A stretch of 64,000 nt of DNA from Tieghemostelium lacteum (lineage: Eukaryota; Evosea; Eumycetozoa; Dictyosteliales; Raperosteliaceae): contig LODT01000028.1 in the NCBI GenBank assembly GCA_001606155.1, positions 1,526,735 to 1,590,734 on the forward strand. The letters run 5' to 3'. Below the pieces are notes generated by a model. It was not told where the DNA came from. It did no database searches and saw only the letters and a list, made by a program, of their open reading frames with translations. Positions within the stretch are counted from its first letter, which is position 1; each line of letters begins with the position of its first letter. A program made the position numbers and the translations under genes. This document shows, one piece after another, positions 762-57,167 of this stretch.

Positions 762-2018
762 ATGGAAAAGAATTTACCTCTGACTGTATTGAATCAAATA
801 TTTTATTATTCTGATTATAGTTTAAAGTCAATATCATCCATTGCATGTGTGAACAAGTACTACAGTGAAGTGTGTCAGAATAATATAATATTCAAGAGAG
901 TTTATATCAGAAGATATGGAGAAAGAGCTTTTGAAATGGAAAAGAAATCCAGACTTAATATCAAAATGGTTCAGAAAAAGAGAAAAGATTTCTGTAGATA
1001 TCCACCAGTAGATGAAGATTTCAAACAGTGGTATACCACTGTTAAATCCATTGAAGCATTTCATGAAATTGGGTTTTTTTATGTCGATATAGGAAGTGAA
1101 GTTGTAAAATATTTTGTCACTAAAAGACAAGGTTTAGTACATCCTAAACTCGTGCCCACTGCAACTTCAGTAGAGTCTCTAACACTCTATCACCGATTCC
1201 AAGTGGATAAACTCATTGAAGCTCTTTACTCTTTTTTTGTGTATCCTAAAATATCAATTGATTCTCCAATGGCAATAGCAGTTTCTCCAACCTATTTTGA
1301 AGGTAAACTTCGAGATAAGTTAGAAACTCTAAAGAAAAAGCTTCCAGGTAAATTTGTTCATTTTAAGAACTCTGGATTGATTGCTTTACAACTCCATAGT
1401 TTGACATCAGGTATTGTAGTTATGGTTGGTATGAGTAGTACTCTCATTGTACCCTTTATCAATGGAGTTCAACTTAAATACCTCGAATACGACATGTGTG
1501 GTGCAATTATTAGAAGAGTTGCACACTTGGGCAGAGAACCAACTGACCACGTCCTTCCAGAATCTCACCCACAAAACCCTATTAACTGGTACCGCAGTCA
1601 AAAAGTCATTGAAAACTATGAACTAAGAAAGATTCATGACCCATCTTTGAACGATAACCACGAGTATCTTGCTGAATCTTATTTTGATCCACACAGTATG
1701 AGAAAAGAATTGTCAGTAGTCTACAGTGGTTACAATAAAGAAACCAAAGGAAAAGTTAATTTGGGTTTAGTTGAAAAGGTTGTTGAATGTCTTGACTTAA
1801 ATAGAAATAACCCTAAAGCTTCACTACTACAAAATATAGTTCTCACTGGTGGTATTACTGCAATTGAAGGTTTTCAAAATAGATTTCAAAATGCCATAAC
1901 ACAACTAAGACCCTCAGTTAAAGTCCATTACACTGATACACCAATCTTTGATGTAATTAATGGACTTTATCTTGACAGTTGTCAAACTGAATCGCTACAT
2001 GATATTTACCAAATTTAA
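762..2018 (+). CDS. F-box protein with actin-like fold (plant ARP8-like)
   Basis: A single-exon gene of 418 residues. Residues 1-50 read as an F-box (LPLTVLNQIFYYSDYSLKSISSIACVNKYY), which in other proteins recruits substrates to SCF ubiquitin ligases. The rest has actin-family features: a GVQL segment near residue 235 and a VLTGGITAIEGFQNR segment near residue 366, matching the actin 'TGG..ipGf..R' signature. An F-box joined to an actin-related domain is the layout of plant ARP8. The N-terminal actin phosphate-binding loop is poorly conserved (VDIGSEVVKYF near residue 108), so ATP binding is uncertain. The ATG at 762 follows an A-rich stretch, which suits this genome. The role as a ubiquitin-ligase adaptor with an actin-like module is inferred. 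Confidence 0.75.
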   Translation: MEKNLPLTVLNQIFYYSDYSLKSISSIACVNKYYSEVCQNNIIFKRVYIRRYGERAFEMEKKSRLNIKMVQKKRKDFCRYPPVDEDFKQWYTTVKSIEAFHEIGFFYVDIGSEVVKYFVTKRQGLVHPKLVPTATSVESLTLYHRFQVDKLIEALYSFFVYPKISIDSPMAIAVSPTYFEGKLRDKLETLKKKLPGKFVHFKNSGLIALQLHSLTSGIVVMVGMSSTLIVPFINGVQLKYLEYDMCGAIIRRVAHLGREPTDHVLPESHPQNPINWYRSQKVIENYELRKIHDPSLNDNHEYLAESYFDPHSMRKELSVVYSGYNKETKGKVNLGLVEKVVECLDLNRNNPKASLLQNIVLTGGITAIEGFQNRFQNAITQLRPSVKVHYTDTPIFDVINGLYLDSCQTESLHDIYQI

Positions 2019-6363: not shown

Positions 6364-7747
6364 ATGTCAAAAGAACAAGATTATAGTTTAAGAAATACAA
6401 CACCCTTCCCTCATGGGATTACTATAGAAGATTGTAGAAATGCAATTAAAGGGTTATCGTGTTTTAGAGAAAAACTTAATAAAGAAGATGGTACTATCGC
6501 ATTTAACTATGATTTCTTGCAAAATGATAGTTTTCCAAACCCATACATTGAAAAAGATTCACAAAAATCATTTTACTATAAAGTTAGAAGGTATGCACAA
6601 CCTATTAACATCAAACAACATAAATTGTTTATTCACACTAATATTTATATGAAACAGAGAATGTAGGGGAATTATTTTTGATGCCAATACAAAGGCATTG
6701 ATTTGCAGAAAATTTCACAAGTTTTTCAATATAAATGAGAACTTGGAATGCCATGAATCAGCAATTGATATGAATCAAGACTTTATATTGATGGAGAAAA
6801 TTGATGGGTCTTTAATTGCACCATTTATATTACAAGATATAATTAGATGGGGTTCAAAGATGGGTATAACTGAATTGGGTTTAAGATTAGAAGAATTTAT
6901 TGCAAGATCAAAAGAGTATAGATATAATGAATTTAGTATGGTGTGGTTAAAGAAAGGGTTTAGTGTACTGTTTGAATACACTTCAATGGACCAACAAATT
7001 ATATTGACTTATAAAGAGGATTCTTTAAGAGTAATTGGTATTAGAGATATGTTTACTGGTGATTATGTGCCTTGGGATGATGTAAAATCAACTTGTAAAG
7101 AATATGGTATTCCAATTGTAGATATTATAGATCACAAGAATCACCCAAGTTTTAAGGATATTAAGAATACAAAGGATTTAGTGAATGCAGTTAGAAATGT
7201 CAAAGGAATTGAAGGGTATGTCATTAGATTTTCTTCTGGAAAAACCTATAAAATTAAAACACAATTTTATATGGACTTGGCAAAAATATGTGTGAGTTCA
7301 GAACAATTGATGAAATGTGAGAAGGATGTGTGGGCAATTATACTCGGTGGTCAATTAGATGATGTTCTAGCAACAATGAACTCTAATACCAGATCAGCAT
7401 TGAACGTTGACAAGATTAAAGAATTTTCAAATACACTATTTCAGAGAATAGAAGATGTCTCCAAAACCATAATTGAACATATTATATCAGCCAAAGAAAA
7501 GAATTGTCAGAGAAAGTCTTTTCAAAATCTCAAGTTTCCAACTGGATATTTCTCAGGTCGTACATTACAATTTGCCTACCATTTCTTTGATTTAATTCAG
7601 AAAGAGGATACAGTAGATAGACATATTTCAACCGTCTCCAAAGCGCTCGTACAAAGATGTTTACAAGGTACCACTTCAGGCTCAAAACTATTAGATACTA
7701 AAGATTTGTTAGGTTCAAATATTAATTTTGGTGAAGAATTAGCATAG
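6364..7747 (+). CDS. T4 RNA ligase 1 (Rnl1)-like RNA ligase
   Basis: Two exons, 6364-6590 and 6658-7747 (intron GTATGC...ACAG), give 438 residues. The spliced protein carries the nucleotidyltransferase ligase motifs in order: ECRGIIF (77-83; the T4 Rnl1 counterpart is ECRGIMF), RKFHKFFNINEN (93-104), motif I EKIDGSL with the predicted adenylated lysine at about 123, motif III-like VLFEYTS followed by QQIILTYKED, motif IV EGYVIRF and motif V TYKIKTQFY. A helical C-terminal region follows, as in T4 Rnl1. The family joins 5'-phosphate to 3'-hydroxyl RNA ends through enzyme-AMP and is best known for repair of cleaved tRNA. All catalytic motifs look intact. Cellular role and substrate are unknown. 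A second ATG 15 bases upstream (6349) is possible. Without the intron the frame stops at 6666. Confidence 0.85.
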
Positions 7748-44077: not shown

Positions 44078-47000
44078 ATGAAATTTTATGTATTTTTACT
44101 ATTTGTGGTAATATTTGTGGTAATAGGAAAAAGTGAAGGATTTCAATTTGGTAATATTACTTCTAGACCATTACAATCAGGTTTAAATTCTATTGGTAAT
44201 ATATTGAGATCAGATGCCTCTCAAGATTATCAGAGTTATTTGGATTCTACCAATCAATTTAATATATTGGTTCAGACACAAACTAATGTATATTCAATAG
44301 TTTTGGCATCTGTTGTAGGAGGTACTGATGGTACTCCTATATCTCTAACAGGTACACTATTTGCTGGAATTCCTGATCTAACCAATTACAATATCCTATC
44401 AGTATCTTGTGGATACAGAGCTCAAACCAATATCTTTATGACTGAATCTGAATTTGCACTGGTACAAGATATTGGTTTATCCTCTCAAGTTAGACTCTAT
44501 GAATTCTATTCTTCACCTGGAAACCATGTAAAATGGGTTACAAATCCAAATAGACTAATAGTACTCACCAAACAATCAGCAATATCAGAAGTTGAAATTT
44601 ATACATTAGCTTCATCAGCTCCAAACACAGGTTTCACAGTTTCTAATAATCCCACAAAAACTCTTTCTCTTAATGAATTGGACTCTGTAGTCAATTTTAT
44701 GTATTATGACGGTGCTTCATTTATCTATGCATTCAAAGATTCCATATTTTATCAATATAATGTAGGACCAAGTGCTACCAATGGGTTCGAACTATCAGGT
44801 AGTTCAAGTGCAATTGTTGGTGGATCGACACTATCAAGAGGTGCTGCAGTTGCTACCGCATCTCTACTCTATGTATGTTCACAAGTTAGTGGTATGGTAA
44901 ATATAGAACAATTCGATCCAAATACATTGTCAGCAGCTCAAATGGATCCAATTAGTGGTGGACTATATACTATTTCTTCATGTCTAAGTGCTCAATATGA
45001 CCAGTTTAAGGGTATTGTATTCTTCTTGATTCAAGCTACAGATGGTACTCTTGGTTTTATATCATTCCCTACTTCAACCACTACCTTTTCTGGTCTTACC
45101 GTCAATTGGATTCCATTATTAAATGCTCCTATGTCTGCCAATAAGCAATCTTATTCACTAGGTTTACTCAACCCAGATCCATCTATACAAGCACGTTTGT
45201 CTATTGTCTTACCCAATGCAACACTCATTCATTTCCCATACACTTCATATTGTCCAAATGATTGTAGTGGACATGGAATATGTTTTGAAACTACTTGCAC
45301 TTGTGATGCTGATTATGTCTTAGATGATTGCAGTATATTGGAACCTACTATAACTGGCATAACCCGTGTATCCTATTCCTCACCATCCAACGTAACCATT
45401 CTAGGTACAGGCTTTATAAATGCTACAACTATTGAAATATCCATTTCGGGTATTGTAGAATGCACCAATGCTGTATATATAAGTTCAACTGAAATTCATT
45501 GTACAACTAATGATTTCACAGATTCTTCTCTCTCACCTTTTCAGAATCAAACTTTGACATTAAAGCTTGACAGTTATGAATCTGATCCTGTTGATATTGG
45601 ATTAATATTCACATCACCTAAAGTCACTTCTATTGACCAGAATGAAGGTATTGTAACAGTTAGAGGATCAGATTTCTACACATTAACTTTTATGGAGATT
45701 AAGTTAGGAAGCCAGTCTTGGGAAAATATTCACACTTTAAGTGATGGCTCAGGATATGCATGTGTATTACCTAACAATGCAGATAAGCAGAATCTAACTG
45801 TATTAGCAGTTGGACAACCACAAATAGACCCATATTACAACCAAGATTTCATTCCAGAACCATATTTGACATCACTCTCGCAAAATGTAATACCAACAGC
45901 TTCTACTGTGATTACAATCAATGGAAAGTTCTTTAATGTCTATACAGGTGAACAATGGTATGTCGTACAAGGTAACATTAAAACACTTGTTACACCAATT
46001 GCTACTAATACAACTGCTTTAATATACACAACTGTTAATGGTCTAATACCAAACACCCATATATCAGTAACCTTAAAACCATCTGGAATGACATCCAACT
46101 TACTTTCATTCACTTATGAATCTGCAACCGTTACCTCAATATCTCAAATGTCACCTGAAACCAATTTGATAAACATCCGAGGTACTAACTTAGGTAACTC
46201 TGATTTCTCTGTCAATGTAAAAGATCCAAAAGGTTCAGAACTGAAATTAATAGAGGTTTCCAACACTCAAATTGACTGTGAACTAAAGAACGATACCATT
46301 AAAGGTACATTTACAATTGATGTCATAGGATCAGATACCATTGAAATACCATTGAACTTGAAACCAAATATTGATTCCATAAGCTACCCATCCATCCATG
46401 GTGGATCTAATATCACAATTCAAGGTGAATTCTTATGGAATACAACAGTAGCTATGAACACTGGTTCTTTTGATGACTATATTACATGCAACTCTGAGGG
46501 GTTAACAAATTACCCTGTATCTACACTTATATGTCCTAATATAGTTTCTGGAACAGGTACTATTAATTATAGAGTTGTATCACAGTTATCAGGACAAATG
46601 AATTTAGAATCATCTTATGACACCACTTATCATCCACCTATTCTCTCATCCATTAATCCTACAAGTTACAGACAAGGTCAGACTGTAAAATTCACAATCA
46701 CAGGTAGTGAATTCAATGATGCAGTGAACAGTGTCAGCATTAATAATGAAGATTGTGAAATTATTCATAATATTGAAGGAGAGGTTATCTGTACTCTAGT
46801 ACCAGTAACTGATCCATCAACTGTAACCAATCCAGTCTCTGTATCATTAGATCTAAGCGGTGTAAAAGGGTACAATAACAATACTCTAATCTACCAAAAA
46901 TCATGTCCAGATCAATGTTCAAACAAAGGTACTTGTGACAATATAACTGGTAAATGTACTTGTATGGCTGAATACACTGGTGATAATTGCTCCCAACTAA

Positions 47001-47104
47001 AACAAGATTCCTCAGAAGATGAAATTTCATACAGTACTTTAACAACAGTTAATTTTACTCTAGTTATTCTAATTTTAATTGTCATTTTATTATGTCAGCC
47101 CTAA
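44078..47104 (+). CDS. IPT/TIG and EGF-like surface protein 1
   Basis: 1008 residues in one exon. A signal peptide (MKFYVFLLFVVIFVVIGKSEG) leads into a beta-rich N-terminal region (about 22-385), an EGF-like module (CPNDCSGHGICFETTCTC, about 391-417), a series of IPT/TIG immunoglobulin-like repeats (about 420-930; PTITGITRVS, PKVTSIDQNEG, PPILSSINPTSYRQGQ), a second EGF-like module (CPDQCSNKGTCDNITGKCTC, about 942-970) and a hydrophobic C-terminus. The last suggests a GPI anchor. Many NxT/S sequons are present. Dictyostelids use such proteins (Tgr and relatives) in cell adhesion and recognition, but this architecture alone does not show which. It is a tandem paralogue of the next gene. Confidence 0.82.
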   Translation: MKFYVFLLFVVIFVVIGKSEGFQFGNITSRPLQSGLNSIGNILRSDASQDYQSYLDSTNQFNILVQTQTNVYSIVLASVVGGTDGTPISLTGTLFAGIPDLTNYNILSVSCGYRAQTNIFMTESEFALVQDIGLSSQVRLYEFYSSPGNHVKWVTNPNRLIVLTKQSAISEVEIYTLASSAPNTGFTVSNNPTKTLSLNELDSVVNFMYYDGASFIYAFKDSIFYQYNVGPSATNGFELSGSSSAIVGGSTLSRGAAVATASLLYVCSQVSGMVNIEQFDPNTLSAAQMDPISGGLYTISSCLSAQYDQFKGIVFFLIQATDGTLGFISFPTSTTTFSGLTVNWIPLLNAPMSANKQSYSLGLLNPDPSIQARLSIVLPNATLIHFPYTSYCPNDCSGHGICFETTCTCDADYVLDDCSILEPTITGITRVSYSSPSNVTILGTGFINATTIEISISGIVECTNAVYISSTEIHCTTNDFTDSSLSPFQNQTLTLKLDSYESDPVDIGLIFTSPKVTSIDQNEGIVTVRGSDFYTLTFMEIKLGSQSWENIHTLSDGSGYACVLPNNADKQNLTVLAVGQPQIDPYYNQDFIPEPYLTSLSQNVIPTASTVITINGKFFNVYTGEQWYVVQGNIKTLVTPIATNTTALIYTTVNGLIPNTHISVTLKPSGMTSNLLSFTYESATVTSISQMSPETNLINIRGTNLGNSDFSVNVKDPKGSELKLIEVSNTQIDCELKNDTIKGTFTIDVIGSDTIEIPLNLKPNIDSISYPSIHGGSNITIQGEFLWNTTVAMNTGSFDDYITCNSEGLTNYPVSTLICPNIVSGTGTINYRVVSQLSGQMNLESSYDTTYHPPILSSINPTSYRQGQTVKFTITGSEFNDAVNSVSINNEDCEIIHNIEGEVICTLVPVTDPSTVTNPVSVSLDLSGVKGYNNNTLIYQKSCPDQCSNKGTCDNITGKCTCMAEYTGDNCSQLKQDSSEDEISYSTLTTVNFTLVILILIVILLCQP

Positions 47105-47405
47105 AATATTAGTTTAATACAACCTGTATGTGGTTTTGGAATAAAAAAACCAATGAAAATTACTGAATGTAGAAATAAATAATGGTTTTACAAAGTCATT
47201 TTTGAACTGAAATCTCTTCAAAATAGTTCTATGCTATTGGTATATAAAGGTTTAATGTGTTTAATTGACTTTTATAATAAATGTGAATTTATTTTTGATT
47301 AAAACACATTTTTACAAATTCAAAGAATTAAGATATTTTTATTTTTTTTAATCCCTATTGTAAAACTAGCCAGTTTTTTTAATTCCTTTTCATTTAAGAT
47401 TAAAT
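47105..47405. other. Intergenic between tandem paralogues
   Basis: About 300 AT-rich bases without a gene. Confidence 0.45.
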
Positions 47406-50371
47406 ATGAAATTATATTATTTATTAGTAATAATACTTTTAATTCATTATTGTAATGGTGAAGCCCCGTGGTTATCAACCAATCTCAAAACTTTAGCAGA
47501 TCGTCAAGGAAATCCAATTACTGGTATTGTAAGTTGTTAAATCAATATTCTAAATAATTGGGTTACATTTTAATTAATATTTATATATAATAGACTAAAA
47601 TAGTTGCAACAGACGATTATAATTTAGAGGACCCTATATATAGTATAGCAATTTCAACTAGTACCTATTTTTATTCATTACCATTGGTAATTGTGCTATT
47701 TAACAATGAGGCAACTAAATTGTATGGGTCAAATGTTCCAGATACATTTACTGTTACCAATGGTGGAGCAGTGAATTCTGTAATCTACATGACATCTAGT
47801 AAAGTTGGAATTGCATTGTTAGGAAATTTTCCAACATTGTTTGATACACCTTTAGTATCTACCTCCTCACCCACACAGAATCTCTATTTCTTACCAAAAA
47901 CTTTAACTGGTGAATCCTCCGATTATGTATTATTATCCTATAGTCTTGTTAATGGAGTTCAACAATACAATCTCTTTCCTGTAATTGGTATCTTTTTCAA
48001 CCAAATTCAACCACTTAACAAAACCTTTACAGCTGCATCACCTGATATCTACTCATTCTATGATGGAGGTATTTACATTTACTCTTTTACTTCAGCAAAC
48101 ACCATTTCAAAGACACATGTATTTGGTACCATTCCCACCATTTTTTCATCAGACTTAGGGTTTACACCATCAGTAGGTTTTGCAGTTAGTAATAATAGTA
48201 AAGTATTTGTAGCCTATGTTGATTCAACAAATGGAGGAGGCTATTTAAATGTATATACCTCTGCTTTTGTTTTAATTAATAGTTCACCAATTCTACTCGG
48301 TGCTGATATTGTAACTTTCCATGATGTTACATATGATCGTGCAAAAGATATGATATTCTTCAGTGTACTTTTTTCAAATGGAAACTTTGGGGTTGTTACA
48401 ACTCCATCCACTGGATCTGTAGTTAAGACTAAAAACATGGGAATAGATTCAACTAATGGTCAGTTCAGAGCCATCTCTGTATATCCACCTGATTCAGCAA
48501 TATATTTAGTATCAACCAATGGTTCATTACAAGCTATTCAGTATTCATCATTGTGTGAGAATAACTGTAATAACCAAGGAACTTGTTCAGGTACAGTTTG
48601 TACATGTTATGCCCAATACGCTGGAAATGCATGTCAAGCTATAAAACCAATTATAAACACTATCACAGGTGCTGAATTTTATATAGATTCAATAATAACC
48701 TTGATAGGATCTTCTCTAAATCATGGTACATTCACTGTATCAATCAATGGTAGTACTTGTGCACCTGGAAATTCATCTCAAGATGGAACATCACTAACAT
48801 GTACATTCTCAGCATCAGAAGCATCATCATTCAATCCATTGGAAGCTCAGGCTATCAATGTAAACTTTCCAGATTTAAGTTTCCAATACCCAGAATTCAC
48901 ATATAAGATATTCCCTCAACCCATTATAACATTAGTTTCCCAGCCATTCCAAAATTTGCGTATTGATGGCTCTGGTTTATACTATAATTTTTTGACTGCA
49001 TTTCTAAATAATGTTGCTTTAAGTATTTCTGTCGTTTCTGATTCAACAATGTGGTCGATCGTATCGTTTAATGGGCCTTCCAATAACCTCACAATATCTT
49101 CACATTCCGGAACAGTTTATTATAACGAATACTTGGTTTTGAGACCACAGGTATATTTTACCAATCAAGTTCCTACCACATCCACAAATTTGACAGTTAC
49201 AGGTAAATTCTTTACTGCCACTCCCAATTTGAATTACACTCTTCGTCTAGGTACTACTCCTAATTTTGTACTTGTACCAGTAGTACCTGTAAATGATACT
49301 ATTATAATCAGTGAAATACCACAACTTACACAATGCACTAATAATGTCAATATTCTAACTAGTTATCCAAGTTCCTCATCTAATCAGTCTGATATTATTG
49401 GAATTCAGTATTTTTCAGCAACCATCACCAACTATACACAAATAACACCTTCCAATCAGGTGGTATTCAGTGGTACTAACTTTGGTTTCAATCTAACTTT
49501 TTGTACCTATATAGTTACTTCTGGAGATCCTATTTATTTACTATCAGGAACACAAACTGAAATTACTTTTAAGTTACCTCCAACAGTTTACTCTAGAGTA
49601 ATCACTATATCCACTCTATTTATAACTATAGATGTCCCACTCAATTTGAAACCTAAAATACTCTCAATTACTAAACCACCTATCATAGGTGGAAACCTTA
49701 CCATTACTGGTGAATATCTCAATGGTACACTCATTTCACACGATAGTACACTTTTAGATAGTTGTGAATTCGTTGGTGCCTCTAATTACCCTGCAACTAT
49801 AATTTGTCAAAATTTCCCTGCTGGAAGTGGTACATTTACTCTCTCCTCAGTTTCAAAATTAGCCGGAACTGATGACCAAGAAAGTGATATTTTTAATACA
49901 TCTTATCATCCACCAATAATCTCAGAAATATCACCAAAATCCTATTCCAAAGGAATCTCAACTCAATTTACACTTACTGGTACTAATTTTGATGTAAATT
50001 CCACTGTAATAATTAATGGTGAAAACTGTACCCTCTCTACAGATACAGTACCCACTGGTAATATCTATTGTACTCTATTGTCAAATATTGATCCAACACT
50101 AGTAACCAATCCAGTTAGTGTCAGTGTAACCTTTGATTCAGTTGTAGGTTTCCTCAACACTACTCTAATCTACCAAAAACCATGTCCAAATCAATGTACA
50201 AATATCAATCAAGGTGCTTGTCAATATTCAACTGGTAAATGTAAATGTTCAGAACTCTACCAGGGTGATGATTGCTCTGATCTAAAAACTGATAACATAT
50301 CCTCCTCTACTAAACTCACTTCCTCTTCAATTATCATCCTGTTATCATTCATTTTATTTTATATAATTTAA
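47406..50371 (+). CDS. IPT/TIG and EGF-like surface protein 2
   Basis: Two exons, 47406-47528 and 47594-50371 (intron GTAAGT...AATAG), give 966 residues. Exon 1 supplies the signal peptide (MKLYYLLVIILLIHYCNG). The layout repeats that of the neighbour: beta-rich head, EGF-like module (CENNCNNQGTCSGTVCTC, about 361-386), IPT/TIG repeats, second EGF-like module (CPNQCTNINQGACQYSTGKC, about 903-932) and a GPI-type hydrophobic tail (SSSIIILLSFILFYII). The last 100 residues align closely with the first copy (TNPVSVS, NTTLIYQK). Unlike copy 1 it has an intron near the N-terminus, so copy 1 may have lost it. Confidence 0.82.
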
Positions 50372-51446
50372 ATTATTAAAACAGTTTAATAGTTTAATTA
50401 TGAAAACACATAAATAAAAAAGAAATACATTGAAATAAAAAGTAGTATTTTCTATCAATACCACTACCTTGTTGGGAAATATTAAAAACAGAAGCTGTTT
50501 CTAAATCAGCAAAACCATGGTTTAGTAGAGATGATTTGGTCTATTTGATGGAAGAGAATTTGATATTAGTGGTGACAGAAATGACAAAATACTTTAAATA
50601 GATTTAACCATCCCATTGCTGGTATCAATTTACCAATTGGAAATCACAAATGTTATATTTAGAATTAAATATTGTTAATGAAAAGGTTGCCTTAGGCTCC
50701 TCCTGGTTTATTTTTTGAAGATAGAAGATAAGTTCCATTATTTTAAAAATAGTAGTACTGAAGTACATCAGAAGTTGTAAATGAGTTGGGGTCTTATCTT
50801 CAGAAATTCCTAAATAAAATATAAATATTCAATTCATAAACAAAAGTTTACCACATTGTGCATGTTTACTATTGAAACATTAAAATTATTGTAAATGATT
50901 AAAGGGGTTTTGAGTGAGTTGGGTAGATAAATTTATCAACCTCATACCTATTCTATAATCATCACTTGTGGGGGTTTTTGTACATTCAATTTGTCCAATT
51001 CTATTTATACATTGAGTTGTTTAAATATTGGGGAATATAAATGATTGAAAATGTCGTTGATCATTTTGATAAAATTAAATAAATTCAAATTTAAATTAAT
51101 TTTGTAAAATGTTTGAGGATTTTGTGGGGGTTATTCGGAGGTAGAGGGATCAAAAATAAAAAAAAATGTTTTGTGATTGTTCAAATAGACAATTTTTATG
51201 TTCAATTTTTAAATTTACCACATTTAAATAGTGTAACCCAACCCATTTACAATATTTGGATTGTAAAATAAATGTGGTAGTGTTTTTTGTGTAAAAACTC
51301 TTGGTTCATTAGTGGTGATTAACTTTGAGATTATATAATCAATGGTTTCAATCAAGTATAAAAAGTTTCATATTTTCATTTATTTTAAACATTAAATATT
51401 AATTATTTAAATAACAAAAACAAATACTAATTATCTAAAATCTAAA
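50372..51446. promoter_or_regulatory. Discoidin upstream region with two G-box-like motifs
   Basis: TGTGGGGGT occurs at 50967-50975 and 51124-51132, about 480 and 320 bases before the discoidin ATG. G-rich boxes bound by G-box binding factor control many developmentally regulated dictyostelid genes, so these are candidate sites (inference). Between about 50480 and 50760 there are weak coding-like pieces in several frames (for example NRFNHPIAGINLPIGNHK) that look like debris of a lost gene. Confidence 0.45.
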
Positions 51447-52285
51447 ATGGCAACATTAACATCTATCCCAACCAATGCTGTTCCTTGTATTGCAAATGCT
51501 CTACTAAACTTTAGAACTAGTACTGACTTCAATGCTGATCATGGTGCTAAAAACTGTGTATTAAACTTTGCAAATAATAAAGCATCTGGAACTGATGGTT
51601 CTGAAGCTTGGTGTTCATGTATGTCTAAATTCCATTACTTTTGATATTTTCAATAATATACTTATAATTAAAACATTTATTAGCCATTTTGGATAAAAAT
51701 CAATGGATAATGTTTTCTAGTCCTATTGCTAGAGAATATACCCACTTTTCAATTCAAGGAAGAGGTGAATTTCCACAATGGGTAACATCATTCTATATTA
51801 AATATTCATTAGATAATGTTACTTGGACTGATTACAATAACAAGCAAATGTTCAGTGGTAATACTGATCAACAAACTGTGATTACTTATGCATTCCAAAA
51901 ACCAATTTTAGCAAGATCAGTTGCTATTCATGTTGAGAGTTGGAATTCACATATTTCAATGAGATGTGAATTATATTCTAAACCATTACTACCACAATCC
52001 TTTGTACAAACAGGTACTGTTGCCATTGGTAATAGAGATATCAACACTGGTACTGGTTCAAGAAGTACAACTAGAAAAGTTACATTCCCACAACTATTCA
52101 GTATGGTTCCAAAAGTTGTCATTGGTACTAACCATACTGATACTAGTCATGACAATGGTCAAACTCGTTGGGATGTCCAAGCTAAGAATATTACTGAGAC
52201 TGGTTTTGATTGTGTATTTACAACCTGGGGTAATAGTAATGTCTATGATCTCAGAGCTGATTATGTTGCAGTTCAAAATATTTAA
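51447..52285 (+). CDS. Discoidin (galactose/GalNAc-binding lectin)
   Basis: Two exons, 51447-51618 and 51684-52285 (intron GTATGT...ATTAG), give 257 residues, the discoidin length. The N-terminal discoidin (F5/8 type C) domain spans about 1-155 (GSEAWCSS, NQWIMFSS, FSIQGRGEFPQWVTSFYIKY, ILARSVAIHVESWNSHISMR). The C-terminal H-type lectin domain spans about 160-257 (VQTGTVAIG, RKVTFPQLFSMVPKVVIG, FDCVFTTWG). Discoidins are abundant secreted or cytosolic lectins of early development, used in cell-substrate adhesion and spore-coat material. The RGD found in D. discoideum discoidin I is not present; the nearest string is RGE. There is no signal peptide, as usual for the family. Confidence 0.93.
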
Positions 52286-52396
52286 ATTTGATTGATTTTT
52301 ATCAAAACTTTTTTGAACATTTATATTTTTAAATAAATTGATTCTAAATATTGACTGGAAATGTATAAAATGTATTGGTATTGTTGATGATTATGT

Positions 52397-52491
52397 TGTT
52401 GCTGTACAGATAGTATAATTGGTGGTACAGCTGCTGTAAGTTACTGCACTTGTACCATTTGTTTCTGGACGACTTACTGATGAAGTGTATC
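52397..52491 (-). pseudogene. Short coding-like fragment, minus strand
   Basis: About 30 codons with a Thr/Ser/Cys composition typical of secreted proteins (YTSSVSRPETNGTSAVTY, CTTNYTICTATT) end in TAA at 52397. The sequence upstream on this strand is occupied by another gene, so no start or earlier exon is available. It is possibly debris. Confidence 0.2.
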
Positions 52492-52561
52492 TCAGAAATT
52501 AGATTTTGTTAAAAAAAAAAAAGTCTTTTTTAATATTTTTTTTTTTTGAATATAACAAGAG

Positions 52562-53020
52562 AGTAAGTTATGTTTAGAATTTACATATAATCTCTTTTTT
52601 TGATTGACATGACAAACTAATATTAATGAATAGTGGGTGGAACACCAAGATTTCCTTATCCAAAAACTATATACTATTTTAGTGGTGGTTACTGGAATAA
52701 CAAACCTTACAACTGCCAACGTAATGGATTTATTGTACAATGTTTATTAGCTGCAACTTTAACTACAGTATTTTATATATCAACTAGATTAGAGGTAAGA
52801 TAAATAACCATGATTACACACAACATATATAGAAATACAGCAATAATATTGATACAATATGAACACTAAACAGAGAAGAGTAACACCACCACATAAAGAC
52901 GCACATACAGTTCCAACTCAAGCTCTATCAAAACATAAATTAGAAGACGATCCATATTATTTAATTAGAAAGGAACAAAAGAAAATTGAAAAGAAACAAC
53001 ACCAATCAGCTCATCATTAA
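52562..53020 (+). CDS. Small single-pass membrane protein; start codon split by an intron
   Basis: The frame MGGTPRFPYPKTIYYFSGG opens in exon 2 (52634-52794) with bases TG. A GTAAGT donor at 52563 follows an A at 52562, and joining it to the AATAG acceptor at 52633 makes ATG. Exon 3 is 52874-53020. The protein has 102 residues, with one hydrophobic segment (VQCLLAATLTTVFYIS) and a charged C-terminus (RKEQKKIEKKQ). Size, topology and the FPYPK...GGYW start recall small mitochondrial inner-membrane proteins of fungi. That is from memory and weak. No ATG in frame is available without the intron. Confidence 0.6.
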
Positions 53021-53348
53021 ATTCAAATGAAACAAATACAGAATATTTATAATATAGGTGGTAGTAGTACTACTAAATTCAATTTATAGAGTGTGTAAAA
53101 ATAAATAAAACAAAACTACCACTTGTTTTGTTATACACTCCCTCTCTCTATTTCAAATAATACATTCAAACAAGTGTTATCTTCTTCTACTTCATAATCT
53201 TATCATCGATTCACCGAATTTAATTTTTATGAATGAACCCAACAAACTATTAAAAAAAAAATGGACAGGTTGGTGGGGCATACACTTGACCAATCCAAAC
53301 TTGAATTTTTATTTTTTTTTAGATTTTTTTTTGATCACTTTGTTATAA
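53021..53348. other. Intergenic, pyrimidine-rich then T-runs
   Basis: No gene; a C/T tract near 53125-53150 and A/T runs before the next ATG. Confidence 0.45.
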
Positions 53349-56300
53349 ATGCTAAAAACAACCACACCAACACTTGTATTTTTATGTATTTATTTTTTAT
53401 TGGGTGTGGGTTTGGTTAGTTCCCAAACAACATGGAATACAGGTACTGCTAATAATGGACACATTTACACGTATTTTAATACCCCAGTATCCTATCTATT
53501 TGCAGTAGAGAGTTGTCAATCTAGTTCTAGTTATCTAGTAACCATTTCCAATTTCTACGAAATGCAATTTGTTTTGACTCTTATTGGAAATAATGAAATT
53601 TGGATAAGTTCAGAACAGAATAACAATGGGACACATTTTTCAAATTTTGTGTATGGAACTGGACCTGAAATGGGAGGCTCTATATATGACCCTAATACAG
53701 ATACATCTTTTACCTATTCCCAATGGTCACCTCTTACTCCAACATTTACTACTGTAAATAGTAGATTGACAGTCGTGGTTCCATCAGGCCGACCACATTT
53801 ATTCAATAACAGAGATCCAACTCTCAACTATGGATATGTATGTGAATCAGATGGTGGAAACATTCCATTTATACAATCAGGTAGTATTCCTACTACCGGA
53901 GGTGTACTTATAATCTCAGGTCTGCCAGCAAGTCTCAATCACTCTGCATTGAGTTTAGTAGGAAACAATATAAATGGTGTAACACTTGATATAACAATTA
54001 GTAATTTTATAACTGTATCTTCAACCTCAGTTTCTGTTGTGATCCCTGCAGGTACTGGTGGATACTATTTCACTATATCCGATGGAGGTGCATACACTTC
54101 AGGTGCACTCTATTTCCAATATCAACCTCCTAAATTAAGATACATAATCCCTCCACCAGATTTGTCACAAGGTAGTTTAACTGTATCTATCGTTGGTAGT
54201 AATTTTGGAGGTTCCACAAATTTGTTAGATGTCCAGCTATCCAATGGTATAGCATGTCAATCACCTTCCATTCAAGATACATTTGAAGGATACCAAATGA
54301 TTATATGTCAAGTTACAGGTCCTTTGTTAGATGGGTTCTTACCAGTTTTTGTAAAAGTAGATGAGGTTGTTACAGTTAGTTATAGAGTACCATTGTACTT
54401 TGCCTACAATCAAATGTTCTATTCACTATTCAGACAGTCATCCACATTAGCCTATGCACCAACATTTTTACAAAATTCACAATTTAATCAAATGGTTCCT
54501 TATATGTCCATTCTAAATGATGCGGAACTTATAGGCCAAGTGAAGTCATATAGTGATCCTAACACCCAATTGGAATTCTATCAACCAATTCAAATTGAAA
54601 CTCTACCACATACATTTAAAATCACTCAAGGTCCTAATACAGGTGTTATTTTTGATTATGGTTCAGGAATTGATACTAGCTCTATAGTCGATTATACAGT
54701 TCCATTTTTTATAACGGTATCTGATACTCCTTCACTTACATCTTTCAATACAACTGCGTTTAGTTATCTATGCGAATTCAGGCAACTGAATCCGCCAGCA
54801 TTCATTGGTATTCAAAATATATTGATGAATACAAATGGTGGCTATGTGATTATTAATCTTAATAACTATGGTGTGGTATCAAGTGTATTGTCAGCTACTT
54901 GTGTAACATGCCCTGGTAATATGGGTAGTCTTCAACTCACACGGGTAAACAGTGGTGATCCAACTGCTTTTTTACTGACTCTTCCTGCTGGTATATCAGG
55001 GCCTTACTCATTCAAAGTAACTATAGACAGTCTGACATCACAGCAAAGTGAATTTGACTATTTCCCACCAGCTGTAACCAGTGTAACTCCTGCAAAGGTC
55101 ACTGGAGGTATGGCCACAATCTTTGGTGGTAACTTTGGTCAATTGTCATCGGATATCACTATAAACGTCCCTGGAAAGATTATAACTAACATAAACTTTG
55201 TTGGATCATTTATTGAATTTCAAATCACTGAAGGCACAGGCTTAATAACTTCAAAACTTCAAGTAGGAAACAAGGTAACATTCTTTAATTTCACCTATGA
55301 GGCACCATCCATTTCCAGTGTTTTACAAAATTCACAGGATACCTATGTAGAGATTACTGGTAGTAATTTTGGATTTAATCTCACTCAAATATCAGTTACA
55401 TACAGTGATAAGCCATGTACTGTATTCTCCATCCAGGATAACTTCCTAAGATGTTATCTACCAAAATATGCACAAAATGGTTTTTTCAAGATTTCTGTTA
55501 ATGGTATATCCATGACCTCAGACTACGGTTACAATTTAACTCCATTCTTTTCATCAGTTACAAAATCAGCAATTCCACAAGGACCAGTGACTATATCTGG
55601 TTTCTTTTGGTCTACTCAATCATATGATGGTACACCATTACCACCAGAAATCATCACAGCAATCACAGATACCAATAGTAGAATTCTGAATTTAACATGT
55701 ACTCTCAACCTATTTACCAGTGGTCCTTACCAGTACCAGATACAGTGCATGTTTTTACCATTCATTTCAACTACATTTTATCAAATTAGTGTGGTTTATA
55801 ACACCCAATCCTATGTTCAGAATTCAGGGTACCAATTAGCAGAGATCACACAAGCAACTCCAATACCCCAGAATCAACGTGGTAATGTGACTGTTGTAGG
55901 TTCTAATTTTGGTGAGATTATTGATAGTGTTGCTATAGGAGGTCGTGCATGTACTAGTTTCCAGAGGGTAACTTCTGGTAAGGTTTTATGTGATTTTGAT
56001 GGTTTGGCACCAGTTTCCAATCCATCTATAGGTTTGGAAGTTTCCATAGTCTTTGGAGACCAGAATCCAAAGAGAAACGCATTCTTTTATACCAAGAAAA
56101 TTCCGTGTCCTGGTGTGACGACACCTTGTTCTTCACATGGAACTTGTAATGAAAATAACGGACAATGTACATGTGAGTCTGGATACGACGCATTTGATTG
56201 CTCAGTACAAGTTCCAACACCATCAACTCCACCTCCTAAACCTGTTTCCACTGATAACTCTACTATTATCATTGGAAGTAATACAACATCATCATCATCA

Positions 56301-57167
56301 GATGATAACGAGAGTTCACAACCTTCTTATAATTTTAAAGTTGGTATTACACACATAAGAGAATTGACATTTTCAGGAGACATTGTCAGAGTATTGTCAT
56401 TGGTTACCGATATCAAATGGGTTGAGCTTAAGGAATTTAGTGAAAATAAGACACTTTATTATCGAGGTATATTCCCAGAGAAAAGTAGTTTGGTGTTGGA
56501 AGTCTACACTACCTATTATGAGGAACCTTCTAACTATGTGTTTGGAGGTGAAGATTTCCATATCAGTCGAAATTCAATGAAATTGTTAATACACATGTTC
56601 AACTACACCTTTGACAAGGAAACCAATTCACTTGAGGTTATATATCTCTCAAAAACCTCAAATTCCATTTCATACGATTGTGAAACTGTACAGAGTATAC
56701 CAAACTTTGGTGGTGGTGATACCTCAGATAATCAGACTATTGACTGGTTTGAAATCAATTCGGGAGGTGCCATTTTCAAAGCTAGTTTCTCAAGAAGAAT
56801 GATTGTGGATAACAGATATAGACTGAGTAAAGTCATTGTTTTGCCTTCCACTGATACACTCTACCAACTATCCACCGCATCAACCAATGAAGAGTTCAAT
56901 CTTTACACTGCCATTGTCACACCCTACTTTGAAAATGATTGTTATCTGGATCCAAATTTTGCAGTTTTGACAACAGTCGACTACCAAGATAAAAATGGAA
57001 AAACTTGTAATGAAAATGATGAATTTCCACGTTGGAAAATTGCAACCATCGTAGTTTGTGCCGGTGTTGGTTTTATATCTCTAATCATTATCTTAGTCTA
57101 TGTATTCTATCAAAAATCTTTAAATCTACGTATTAAATCACTTAAATTCACAAAATTATTTAAATAA
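53349..57167 (+). CDS. ComC-like adhesion protein: lectin-like, IPT/TIG, EGF, ComC domain, TM
   Basis: 1272 residues, one exon. Signal peptide 1-25 (TLVFLCIYFLLGVGLVSSQ); residues 26-170 resemble a C-type-lectin-like domain (YLVTISNFYEMQFVLTL, NNEIWISSEQ, LNYGYVCES). Several IPT/TIG repeats follow (about 175-910; PPKLRYIIPPPDLSQGSL, PAVTSVTPAKVTGG, VTVVGSNFGE). An EGF-like module (CSSHGTCNENNGQCTC) lies near 919-946. Residues 993-1210 match the ComC-type C-terminal domain (ITHIRELTFSGDIVRVL, DIKWVELKEFSENKTLYY). A transmembrane helix (about 1230-1254) and a short basic tail end the protein. Domain types point to cell-cell recognition or signalling during aggregation (inference). Confidence 0.82.
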   Translation: MLKTTTPTLVFLCIYFLLGVGLVSSQTTWNTGTANNGHIYTYFNTPVSYLFAVESCQSSSSYLVTISNFYEMQFVLTLIGNNEIWISSEQNNNGTHFSNFVYGTGPEMGGSIYDPNTDTSFTYSQWSPLTPTFTTVNSRLTVVVPSGRPHLFNNRDPTLNYGYVCESDGGNIPFIQSGSIPTTGGVLIISGLPASLNHSALSLVGNNINGVTLDITISNFITVSSTSVSVVIPAGTGGYYFTISDGGAYTSGALYFQYQPPKLRYIIPPPDLSQGSLTVSIVGSNFGGSTNLLDVQLSNGIACQSPSIQDTFEGYQMIICQVTGPLLDGFLPVFVKVDEVVTVSYRVPLYFAYNQMFYSLFRQSSTLAYAPTFLQNSQFNQMVPYMSILNDAELIGQVKSYSDPNTQLEFYQPIQIETLPHTFKITQGPNTGVIFDYGSGIDTSSIVDYTVPFFITVSDTPSLTSFNTTAFSYLCEFRQLNPPAFIGIQNILMNTNGGYVIINLNNYGVVSSVLSATCVTCPGNMGSLQLTRVNSGDPTAFLLTLPAGISGPYSFKVTIDSLTSQQSEFDYFPPAVTSVTPAKVTGGMATIFGGNFGQLSSDITINVPGKIITNINFVGSFIEFQITEGTGLITSKLQVGNKVTFFNFTYEAPSISSVLQNSQDTYVEITGSNFGFNLTQISVTYSDKPCTVFSIQDNFLRCYLPKYAQNGFFKISVNGISMTSDYGYNLTPFFSSVTKSAIPQGPVTISGFFWSTQSYDGTPLPPEIITAITDTNSRILNLTCTLNLFTSGPYQYQIQCMFLPFISTTFYQISVVYNTQSYVQNSGYQLAEITQATPIPQNQRGNVTVVGSNFGEIIDSVAIGGRACTSFQRVTSGKVLCDFDGLAPVSNPSIGLEVSIVFGDQNPKRNAFFYTKKIPCPGVTTPCSSHGTCNENNGQCTCESGYDAFDCSVQVPTPSTPPPKPVSTDNSTIIIGSNTTSSSSDDNESSQPSYNFKVGITHIRELTFSGDIVRVLSLVTDIKWVELKEFSENKTLYYRGIFPEKSSLVLEVYTTYYEEPSNYVFGGEDFHISRNSMKLLIHMFNYTFDKETNSLEVIYLSKTSNSISYDCETVQSIPNFGGGDTSDNQTIDWFEINSGGAIFKASFSRRMIVDNRYRLSKVIVLPSTDTLYQLSTASTNEEFNLYTAIVTPYFENDCYLDPNFAVLTTVDYQDKNGKTCNENDEFPRWKIATIVVCAGVGFISLIIILVYVFYQKSLNLRIKSLKFTKLFK

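What the first reader, a model, noticed from the sequence alone, without database searches (positions are those of the whole stretch)
6364..7747. T4 Rnl1-type RNA ligase with a complete motif set in a social amoeba
After splicing one intron, the protein carries ECRGIIF, KFFNINEN, KIDGS, EGYVIRF and YKIK in T4 Rnl1 order and spacing, plus a helical C-terminal region. Rnl1 is best known from phage, where it reseals tRNA cut by host anticodon nucleases. A stand-alone eukaryotic copy with an intron suggests either an old acquisition or a little-studied tRNA or stress-RNA repair path.
Basis: partly seen in the sequence, partly recalled or inferred. Interest (0 to 1): 0.7.

Follow-up and report, generated by a model that had tools for sequence, protein, structure and literature searches.

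The report
Phage-type RNA ligase in social amoeba
This amoeba gene encodes a complete enzyme for rejoining broken RNA, of a kind best known from bacterial viruses; the same genome carries a second copy and enzymes that could prepare the broken ends, so it may let the amoeba mend damaged RNA.

Summary
Confirmed and extended. Window 6364-7747 encodes a 438-residue protein in two exons (intron 6591-6657). It matches Pfam RNA_lig_T4_1 (E 5e-35), phage PHROG 562 (E 4e-54) and, among PDB sequences below E 0.001, only T4 Rnl1. The known catalytic residues are conserved. The C-terminal part is homologous to phage Rnl1 C-terminal domains (44.6 bits; best of 1000 shuffles 12.8); T4 Rnl1 is the best fold match. 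The genome holds a second, 41%-identical Rnl1 gene with different introns, encoding the splice junction uninterrupted. The closest relatives found outside are phage proteins, in 50 of 69 loci near a kinase gene. Fungal Trl1 is more distant in sequence, but a tree test does not exclude it as sister. RtcB, Tpt1, two kinase-phosphatases and another RNA-ligase type are also encoded. Best reading: an old acquisition of a phage-type repair ligase, duplicated and kept, sealing kinase-healed RNA, probably tRNA. The enzyme class is near-certain; substrate and physiology are inferred. No other eukaryotic genome was searchable.

The parts
6364..6590 (+). Exon 1 (residues 1-75 and two bases of codon 76): N-terminal region, alignable with phage Rnl1
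   Evidence: ATG to GT donor, splice enumeration; aligned with phage rows
6591..6657 (+). Predicted spliceosomal intron, 67 nt, GTATGC...ACAG, phase 2
   Evidence: junction KVRRECRG is continuous in the paralogue; no RNA-seq seen
6658..7747 (+). Exon 2 (last base of codon 76, residues 77-438 and stop): nucleotidyltransferase domain and C-terminal domain
   Evidence: structure model of residues 77-438, mean pLDDT 88.8, pTM 0.71
6659..6670 (+). ECRG, holding R79 (= T4 R54)
6719..6742 (+). KFFNINEN, holding K97 and F99 (= T4 K75, F77)
6797..6811 (+). Motif I KIDGS; K123 is the predicted AMP-accepting lysine (= T4 K99)
   Evidence: K, D, G and S invariant in all 20 rows
6971..6976 (+). Motif III FE (E182 = T4 E159)
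7211..7222 (+). Motif IV EGYV (E261, G262 = T4 E227, G228)
7247..7258 (+). Motif V YKIK (K274, K276 = T4 K240, K242)
7259..7744 (+). C-terminal, mostly helical domain homologous to the phage Rnl1 C-terminal domain (residues 277-438, with D310-D311 = T4 D272-D273)
   Evidence: 44.6 bits, E 1.1e-12 against a phage C-terminal profile; best of 1000 shuffles 12.8 bits; helices

Best explanation
The gene encodes a stand-alone, full-length phage-type Rnl1: an ATP-dependent 5'-3' RNA ligase that puts AMP on K123, passes it to an RNA 5'-phosphate and seals that end to a 3'-OH. Its C-terminal domain most likely directs it to broken tRNA or tRNA-like RNA. Ends left by many nucleases (2',3'-cyclic phosphate and 5'-OH) must first be healed by a polynucleotide kinase-phosphatase; the genome encodes two bifunctional ones, and the one without a SAP-like match (C29) is a candidate partner. 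The gene is best explained as an old acquisition from a phage-like source that duplicated in the host lineage. Shown by computation: family, conserved active site, C-terminal domain homology, second copy, presence of healing enzymes. Inferred: activity, tRNA as substrate, PNKP partnership, route of acquisition, physiology.
For: Profiles. PDB by sequence: only the three T4 Rnl1 sequences below E 0.001. Of 25 T4/T2 positions printed, 19 are identical in both amoeba copies, among them R54, K75, F77, K99, D101, G102, S103, K119, E159, E227, G228, K240, K242, Y246, D272 and D273; the six that are not identical in both (79, 100, 177, 179, 309, 315) also vary among the phage rows. C-terminal domain homology. 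Fold of exon 2: T4 Rnl1 E 4e-16, best other 2e-7. Paralogue on C33, 41% identical; the protein search of the assembly scored four candidate pieces, all from these two loci. 1565 of 50,697 phage records matched. By phmmer all 77 phage, viral-contig and Aquificota rows are hit by both amoeba proteins, and neither of two Trl1 pieces is. A kinase hit in 50 of 69 phage or viral loci and a PNKP-type phosphatase hit in 9 of 69; Pfam AAA_33 and HAD_PNKP on the ones scanned. PNKPs, RtcB, Tpt1 in the amoeba genome. Codon usage correlates with four neighbour genes (r 0.91; 0.94 for the paralogue).
Against: No expression, activity or substrate data. The T4 RnlA equivalog cut-off is not reached (111 of 242 bits). 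No eukaryotic genome other than this one could be searched, so 'from phage' could be 'from another eukaryote'. The amoeba pair sits on a long branch: it groups with L013, L100 and L104 at SH-aLRT 92, under that tool's 95 mark, and its nearest rows are others and its place is unresolved. A clade of amoeba plus fungal Trl1 is not rejected (p-AU 0.13). The fold match to T4 Rnl1 has rmsd 17.6 A over 364 columns with TM 0.51, so the placing of the two domains is not confirmed; Trl1 superposes on the catalytic part at about 4 A over some 240 columns. RtcB, also present, can rejoin cleaved RNA without PNKP (established knowledge), so need for Rnl1 is unproven.
Confidence: 0.6

Rival explanations
1. 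A eukaryotic splicing ligase: a stand-alone relative of the fungal Trl1 ligase domain, working in tRNA splicing or in IRE1-type mRNA splicing, with Tpt1 removing a 2'-phosphate.
For: Tpt1 is present and the KEN (IRE1-type) RNase family hits three loci; amoeba plus Trl1 as one clade is not rejected; Trl1 is among the significant fold matches.
Against: RtcB is present and could do both jobs; no Trl1 kinase domain was found (but no control rang, so this is weak); two Trl1 pieces give no phmmer hit while the best phage rows reach 198-210 bits (HMMER filters were on and the pieces are partial); the amoeba C-terminal domain matches phage Rnl1, whereas the Rnl1 profile stops at position 234 of 383 in four of five Trl1 sequences and at 281 in the fifth.
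Confidence: 0.15
2. A ligase for another RNA, such as rRNA after ribotoxin damage, small RNAs, or circular RNAs during development, not tRNA.
For: Rnl1 enzymes seal many single-stranded ends in vitro (established knowledge); bdelloid rotifers strongly induce horizontally acquired RNA ligase genes on fungal attack (PMC11258130, passages).
Against: The C-terminal domain, tied to tRNA in T4 Rnl1 (recalled, no call), is retained.
Confidence: 0.2
3. A decaying or non-catalytic relic of a phage gene.
For: No expression data; none of the five window genes scanned with Pfam looks like an RNA-repair partner (the other window genes were not scanned).
Against: Full-length frame, catalytic residues in place, two copies at 41% identity with the second codon position least changed (0.47/0.33/0.56).
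Confidence: 0.05

Closest known systems
Phage T4 RNA ligase 1 (Rnl1, gene 63)
   Same: Motifs, T4 catalytic positions, C-terminal domain, stand-alone protein
   Different: 23% identity to the T2 protein; in a nuclear genome, with an intron and a paralogue; longer N-terminal region, as in the other phage branch
Rnl1 of alphaproteobacterial and related large phages (RHph_I1_18, vB_RpoS-V10, RcXuper, phiN3) and of IMG/VR contigs
   Same: Closest relatives found: 23-33% identity in the 40 rows listed (12 of 1565 records cover at least 80% of the query) and 26-37% in the best segment of the 80 loci
   Different: A kinase gene is found in 50 of 69 such loci; no linked kinase was seen next to the amoeba gene
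Fungal tRNA ligase Trl1, ligase domain
   Same: Same nucleotidyltransferase superfamily; fold hits from E 2.7e-7
   Different: Trl1 is fused to kinase and phosphodiesterase domains (established knowledge); no phmmer match to two Trl1 pieces
RLIG1 / C12orf29
   Same: 5'-3' RNA ligase that ligates tRNA in vitro, stand-alone in eukaryotes (PMC11494293, start of abstract and passages)
   Different: Another family; that paper says its Yasminevirus homologue lacks the RNA-binding domain of T4 Rnl1 (passages)
Bdelloid rotifer acquired RNA ligases
   Same: Horizontally acquired RNA ligase genes in a eukaryote; trees included PF09511; top matches to bacteria or phages (PMC11258130, passages)
   Different: The domain accession given in that paper's results text is PF013563 [sic]; no rotifer sequence was compared here

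Membership tests
T4 Rnl1 family (PF09511 / PHROG 562) | Significant match to curated profile | tested here: met
   PF09511 121.7 bits vs cut-off 28.3; PHROG 562 E 4.3e-54, residues 61-409
T4 Rnl1 family (PF09511 / PHROG 562) | Nucleotidyltransferase motifs I, III, IV, V and upstream R, K, F residues | tested here: met
   19 of 25 listed T4 positions identical in both copies, including the known catalytic ones (which positions are essential is recalled)
T4 Rnl1 family (PF09511 / PHROG 562) | Family-specific C-terminal helical domain | tested here: met
   orientation relative to the catalytic domain not confirmed
T4 Rnl1 family (PF09511 / PHROG 562) | ATP-dependent sealing of 5'-P/3'-OH RNA | not testable with these tools
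   needs an enzyme assay
T4 RnlA equivalog (TIGR02308) | NCBI curated equivalog cut-off | tested here: not met
   111.1 bits vs 242.25: a member of the wider Rnl1 family, not filed as a T4 RnlA equivalog
Fungal Trl1 | Closest sequence relatives are Trl1 ligase domains | tested here: not met
   77 other rows hit, neither of two Trl1 pieces
Fungal Trl1 | Common clade with Trl1 | tested here: inconclusive
   p-AU 0.13
Fungal Trl1 | Fusion to kinase and phosphodiesterase module | tested here: not met
   no further domain in the 438-aa protein
DNA ligase / capping enzyme | Best profile is DNA ligase or mRNA capping enzyme | tested here: not met

The most novel reading that the evidence does not exclude
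A bacteria-eating amoeba took up a phage counter-defence ligase and turned it into its own RNA-damage repair arm: two Rnl1 paralogues with a dedicated PNKP mend tRNA (or rRNA) cut by ribonuclease toxins of its prey or pathogens.
Probability: 0.18. Interest if true: 0.78.

Novelty: new member of a known kind. Interest (0 to 1): 0.45.

Why it matters
Phage Rnl1 is the textbook counter to anticodon nucleases. A full-length, intron-bearing, duplicated version in a genetically tractable group of amoebae, beside RtcB, Tpt1, PNKP and a second RNA ligase type, would make eukaryotic repair of cleaved tRNA by the 5'-3' route directly testable by knock-out and toxin challenge.

Tried and rejected
Rejected: DNA ligase or capping enzyme; chance motif match; unspliced short protein; bacterial or phage contamination (intron, eukaryotic Sec10 neighbour, host-like codon usage).

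Led nowhere: the first viral scan with the two amoeba proteins alone found no relative among 83 stretches and the genome-contig scan one Aquificota MAG among 194, probably because patterns from two sequences were too specific. Plasmids: 4 of 72,556 records, weak. Rfam on the window: none. PADLOC: none for exon 2. Literature searches: no title or abstract start in the listings describes a dictyostelid Rnl1; several listings were capped (20 of 93 papers, 15 of 19, 12 of 27). Burroughs and Aravind 2016, the review most likely to list one, is not held, so I do not claim that the family is undescribed in amoebae.

Caveats on counts. The tree has 79 rows: 20 of alignment A2 and 59 of the 61 viral proteins (two under 330 aa dropped); some of the 59 run off a contig end. 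One search used a chosen 34 rows; L013, L024, L028 and L030 of A2 and 44 of the 59 viral rows were left out, one Trl1 piece fills under half of the columns, and the tool warned of long branches meeting. The structure alignment A3 used 47 of the 61 viral proteins and L013. In one search the 69 loci are 61 viral and 8 phage; one of the 50 kinase hits (L061) is weak (E 5e-5), three loci supplied the kinase profile, some loci are near-identical, and 7 of the 19 misses end within 500 bases downstream of the ligase. One search's profile held no amoeba row, but its columns came from an alignment that included them.

Full report
Gene model. The window gene starts at ATG 6364 and its stop ends at 7747. 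Read without splicing, that ATG gives 100 residues. Among nine in-frame GT-AG solutions, the intron 6591-6657 keeps the ECRG region aligned with the phage rows and recreates KVRRECRG, which a second gene in the same genome encodes without an intron at that point. The protein has 438 residues.

Family. Pfam gives RNA_lig_T4_1 at 121.7 bits, residues 77-280. PHROG 562, the phage RNA ligase and tail fiber attachment family, covers residues 61-409 (E 4.3e-54). Among PDB sequences the three T4 Rnl1 entries are the only hits below E 0.001. The NCBI equivalog for T4 RnlA matches at 111 bits, under its 242-bit cut-off, so this is a family member and not a T4 RnlA equivalog. Of 25 T4/T2 positions printed, 19 are identical in both amoeba copies, including R54, K75, F77, K99, D101, G102, S103, K119, E159, E227, G228, K240, K242, Y246, D272 and D273; the other six also vary among phage rows (which positions are essential is recalled).

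C-terminal domain. A profile of phage residues after motif V scores 44.6 and 40.9 bits on the two amoeba C-termini, against at most 12.8 bits for 1000 shuffles. AlphaFold2 on exon 2 with 48 related rows gives mean pLDDT 88.8, pTM 0.71 and a helical C-terminal part. Foldseek ranks three T4 Rnl1 structures first (E 4e-16 to 2e-14), then an archaeal RNA ligase and Trl1 at about 2e-7 to 3e-7. The rmsd to T4 Rnl1 is 17.6 A over 364 columns, so the domain folds but not their mutual orientation are supported; Trl1 superposes on the catalytic part at about 4 A over some 240 columns.

Second copy. The assembly (23.33 Mb, 43 contigs) holds a second Rnl1 gene on contig C33. My model has exons at L004 4589-4593, 4663-5020 and 5097-6155, 473 aa; the five-base first exon is its weakest part, and the second acceptor was chosen among four open ones. 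The two proteins are 41% identical and share no intron position. A protein search of the assembly scored four pieces, all from these two loci (only the best candidates are scored there).

Relatives. tblastn matches 1565 of 50,697 phage records, all under 60% identity; the top rows are phages of Rhizobium, Synechococcus, Ruegeria, Caulobacter, Rhodobacter and Sinorhizobium. IMG/VR gives up to 37% in the best segment. The amoeba proteins score 198 and 210 bits against their best rows, 78 and 84 against T2, and have no hit to two fungal Trl1 pieces. Trees put the pair together with full support and outside the T4 group. Its sister is not settled: groups it with L013, L100 and L104 at SH-aLRT 92, one search leaves it unresolved, and a clade with Trl1 is not rejected (p-AU 0.13). 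Eukaryotes other than this one were not searchable here.

Context. A P-loop kinase hit lies in 50 of 69 phage or viral loci and a PNKP-type phosphatase hit in 9 of 69. Of the four viral rows nearest by path, L100 and L069 have both, L104 the kinase only and L099 the phosphatase only. Published work notes bacterial gene neighbourhoods that join Thg1, polynucleotide kinase and RNA ligase (PMC2904730, passages). The amoeba genome has two kinase-phosphatase PNKPs (C23 with a sub-threshold SAP match, C29 without), a phosphatase-only copy, RtcB, Tpt1, an OB-fold RNA ligase of PF09414 type, and IRE1-type RNase domains at three loci. Healing and sealing activities are thus encoded on different contigs or far apart.

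Mechanism and confidence. Auto-adenylation of K123 and 5'-3' sealing follow from established Rnl1 biochemistry (about 0.95 that it is this class). tRNA as main substrate rests on the retained C-terminal domain and the T4 precedent (about 0.5). Repair of damage, as opposed to splicing, is favoured because RtcB is present; a review notes RTCB in Dictyostelium (PMC13247085, passages). A counter-toxin role is attractive for a bacterivore and has a parallel in rotifers (PMC11258130, passages) but is untested.

Novelty. Rnl1-type proteins of eukaryotes are known from fungi, and PF09511 domains were among those examined in rotifers. A stand-alone Rnl1 with the phage C-terminal domain, duplicated in an amoeba, did not show in the listings of the searches made, some of them capped and one key review unavailable. 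I file it as a new member of a known kind.

Noticed in passing
L004 1475-3193 (G000:C33): The second Rnl1 gene lies about 1.4 kb from an mRNA capping enzyme gene (PF01331, PF03919, PF02940), with one ORF between; probably coincidence.
   Followed up: partly
L009 1426-2163 (G000:C11): A 245-aa PNK3P phosphatase protein without a kinase domain match, a third PNKP-like gene in the genome.
   Followed up: partly
L010 781-2055 (G000:C37): RNA ligase of PF09414 with an OB-fold domain PF21189, resembling the Deinococcus/Naegleria type (that name is recalled); a further RNA ligase class in the same genome.
   Followed up: partly
G000 C31 and C33 (L111-L115): One strong Thg1 match and weaker, split Thg1-like matches at two other loci.
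   Followed up: no
L014 758-4663: Rhizobium phage RHph_I1_18 carries a CCA-adding enzyme, a Thg1-like protein, Rnl1 and a kinase close together, with two tRNA genes downstream: it looks like a compact tRNA-repair cassette.
   Followed up: partly
window 762-2018: Protein with a C-terminal actin match and an N-terminal F-box-like match below its cut-off.
   Followed up: no
window 44078-57167: Three neighbouring long ORFs with cysteine-rich EGF-like stretches, two of them with signal-like starts; read by eye, not scanned.
   Followed up: no
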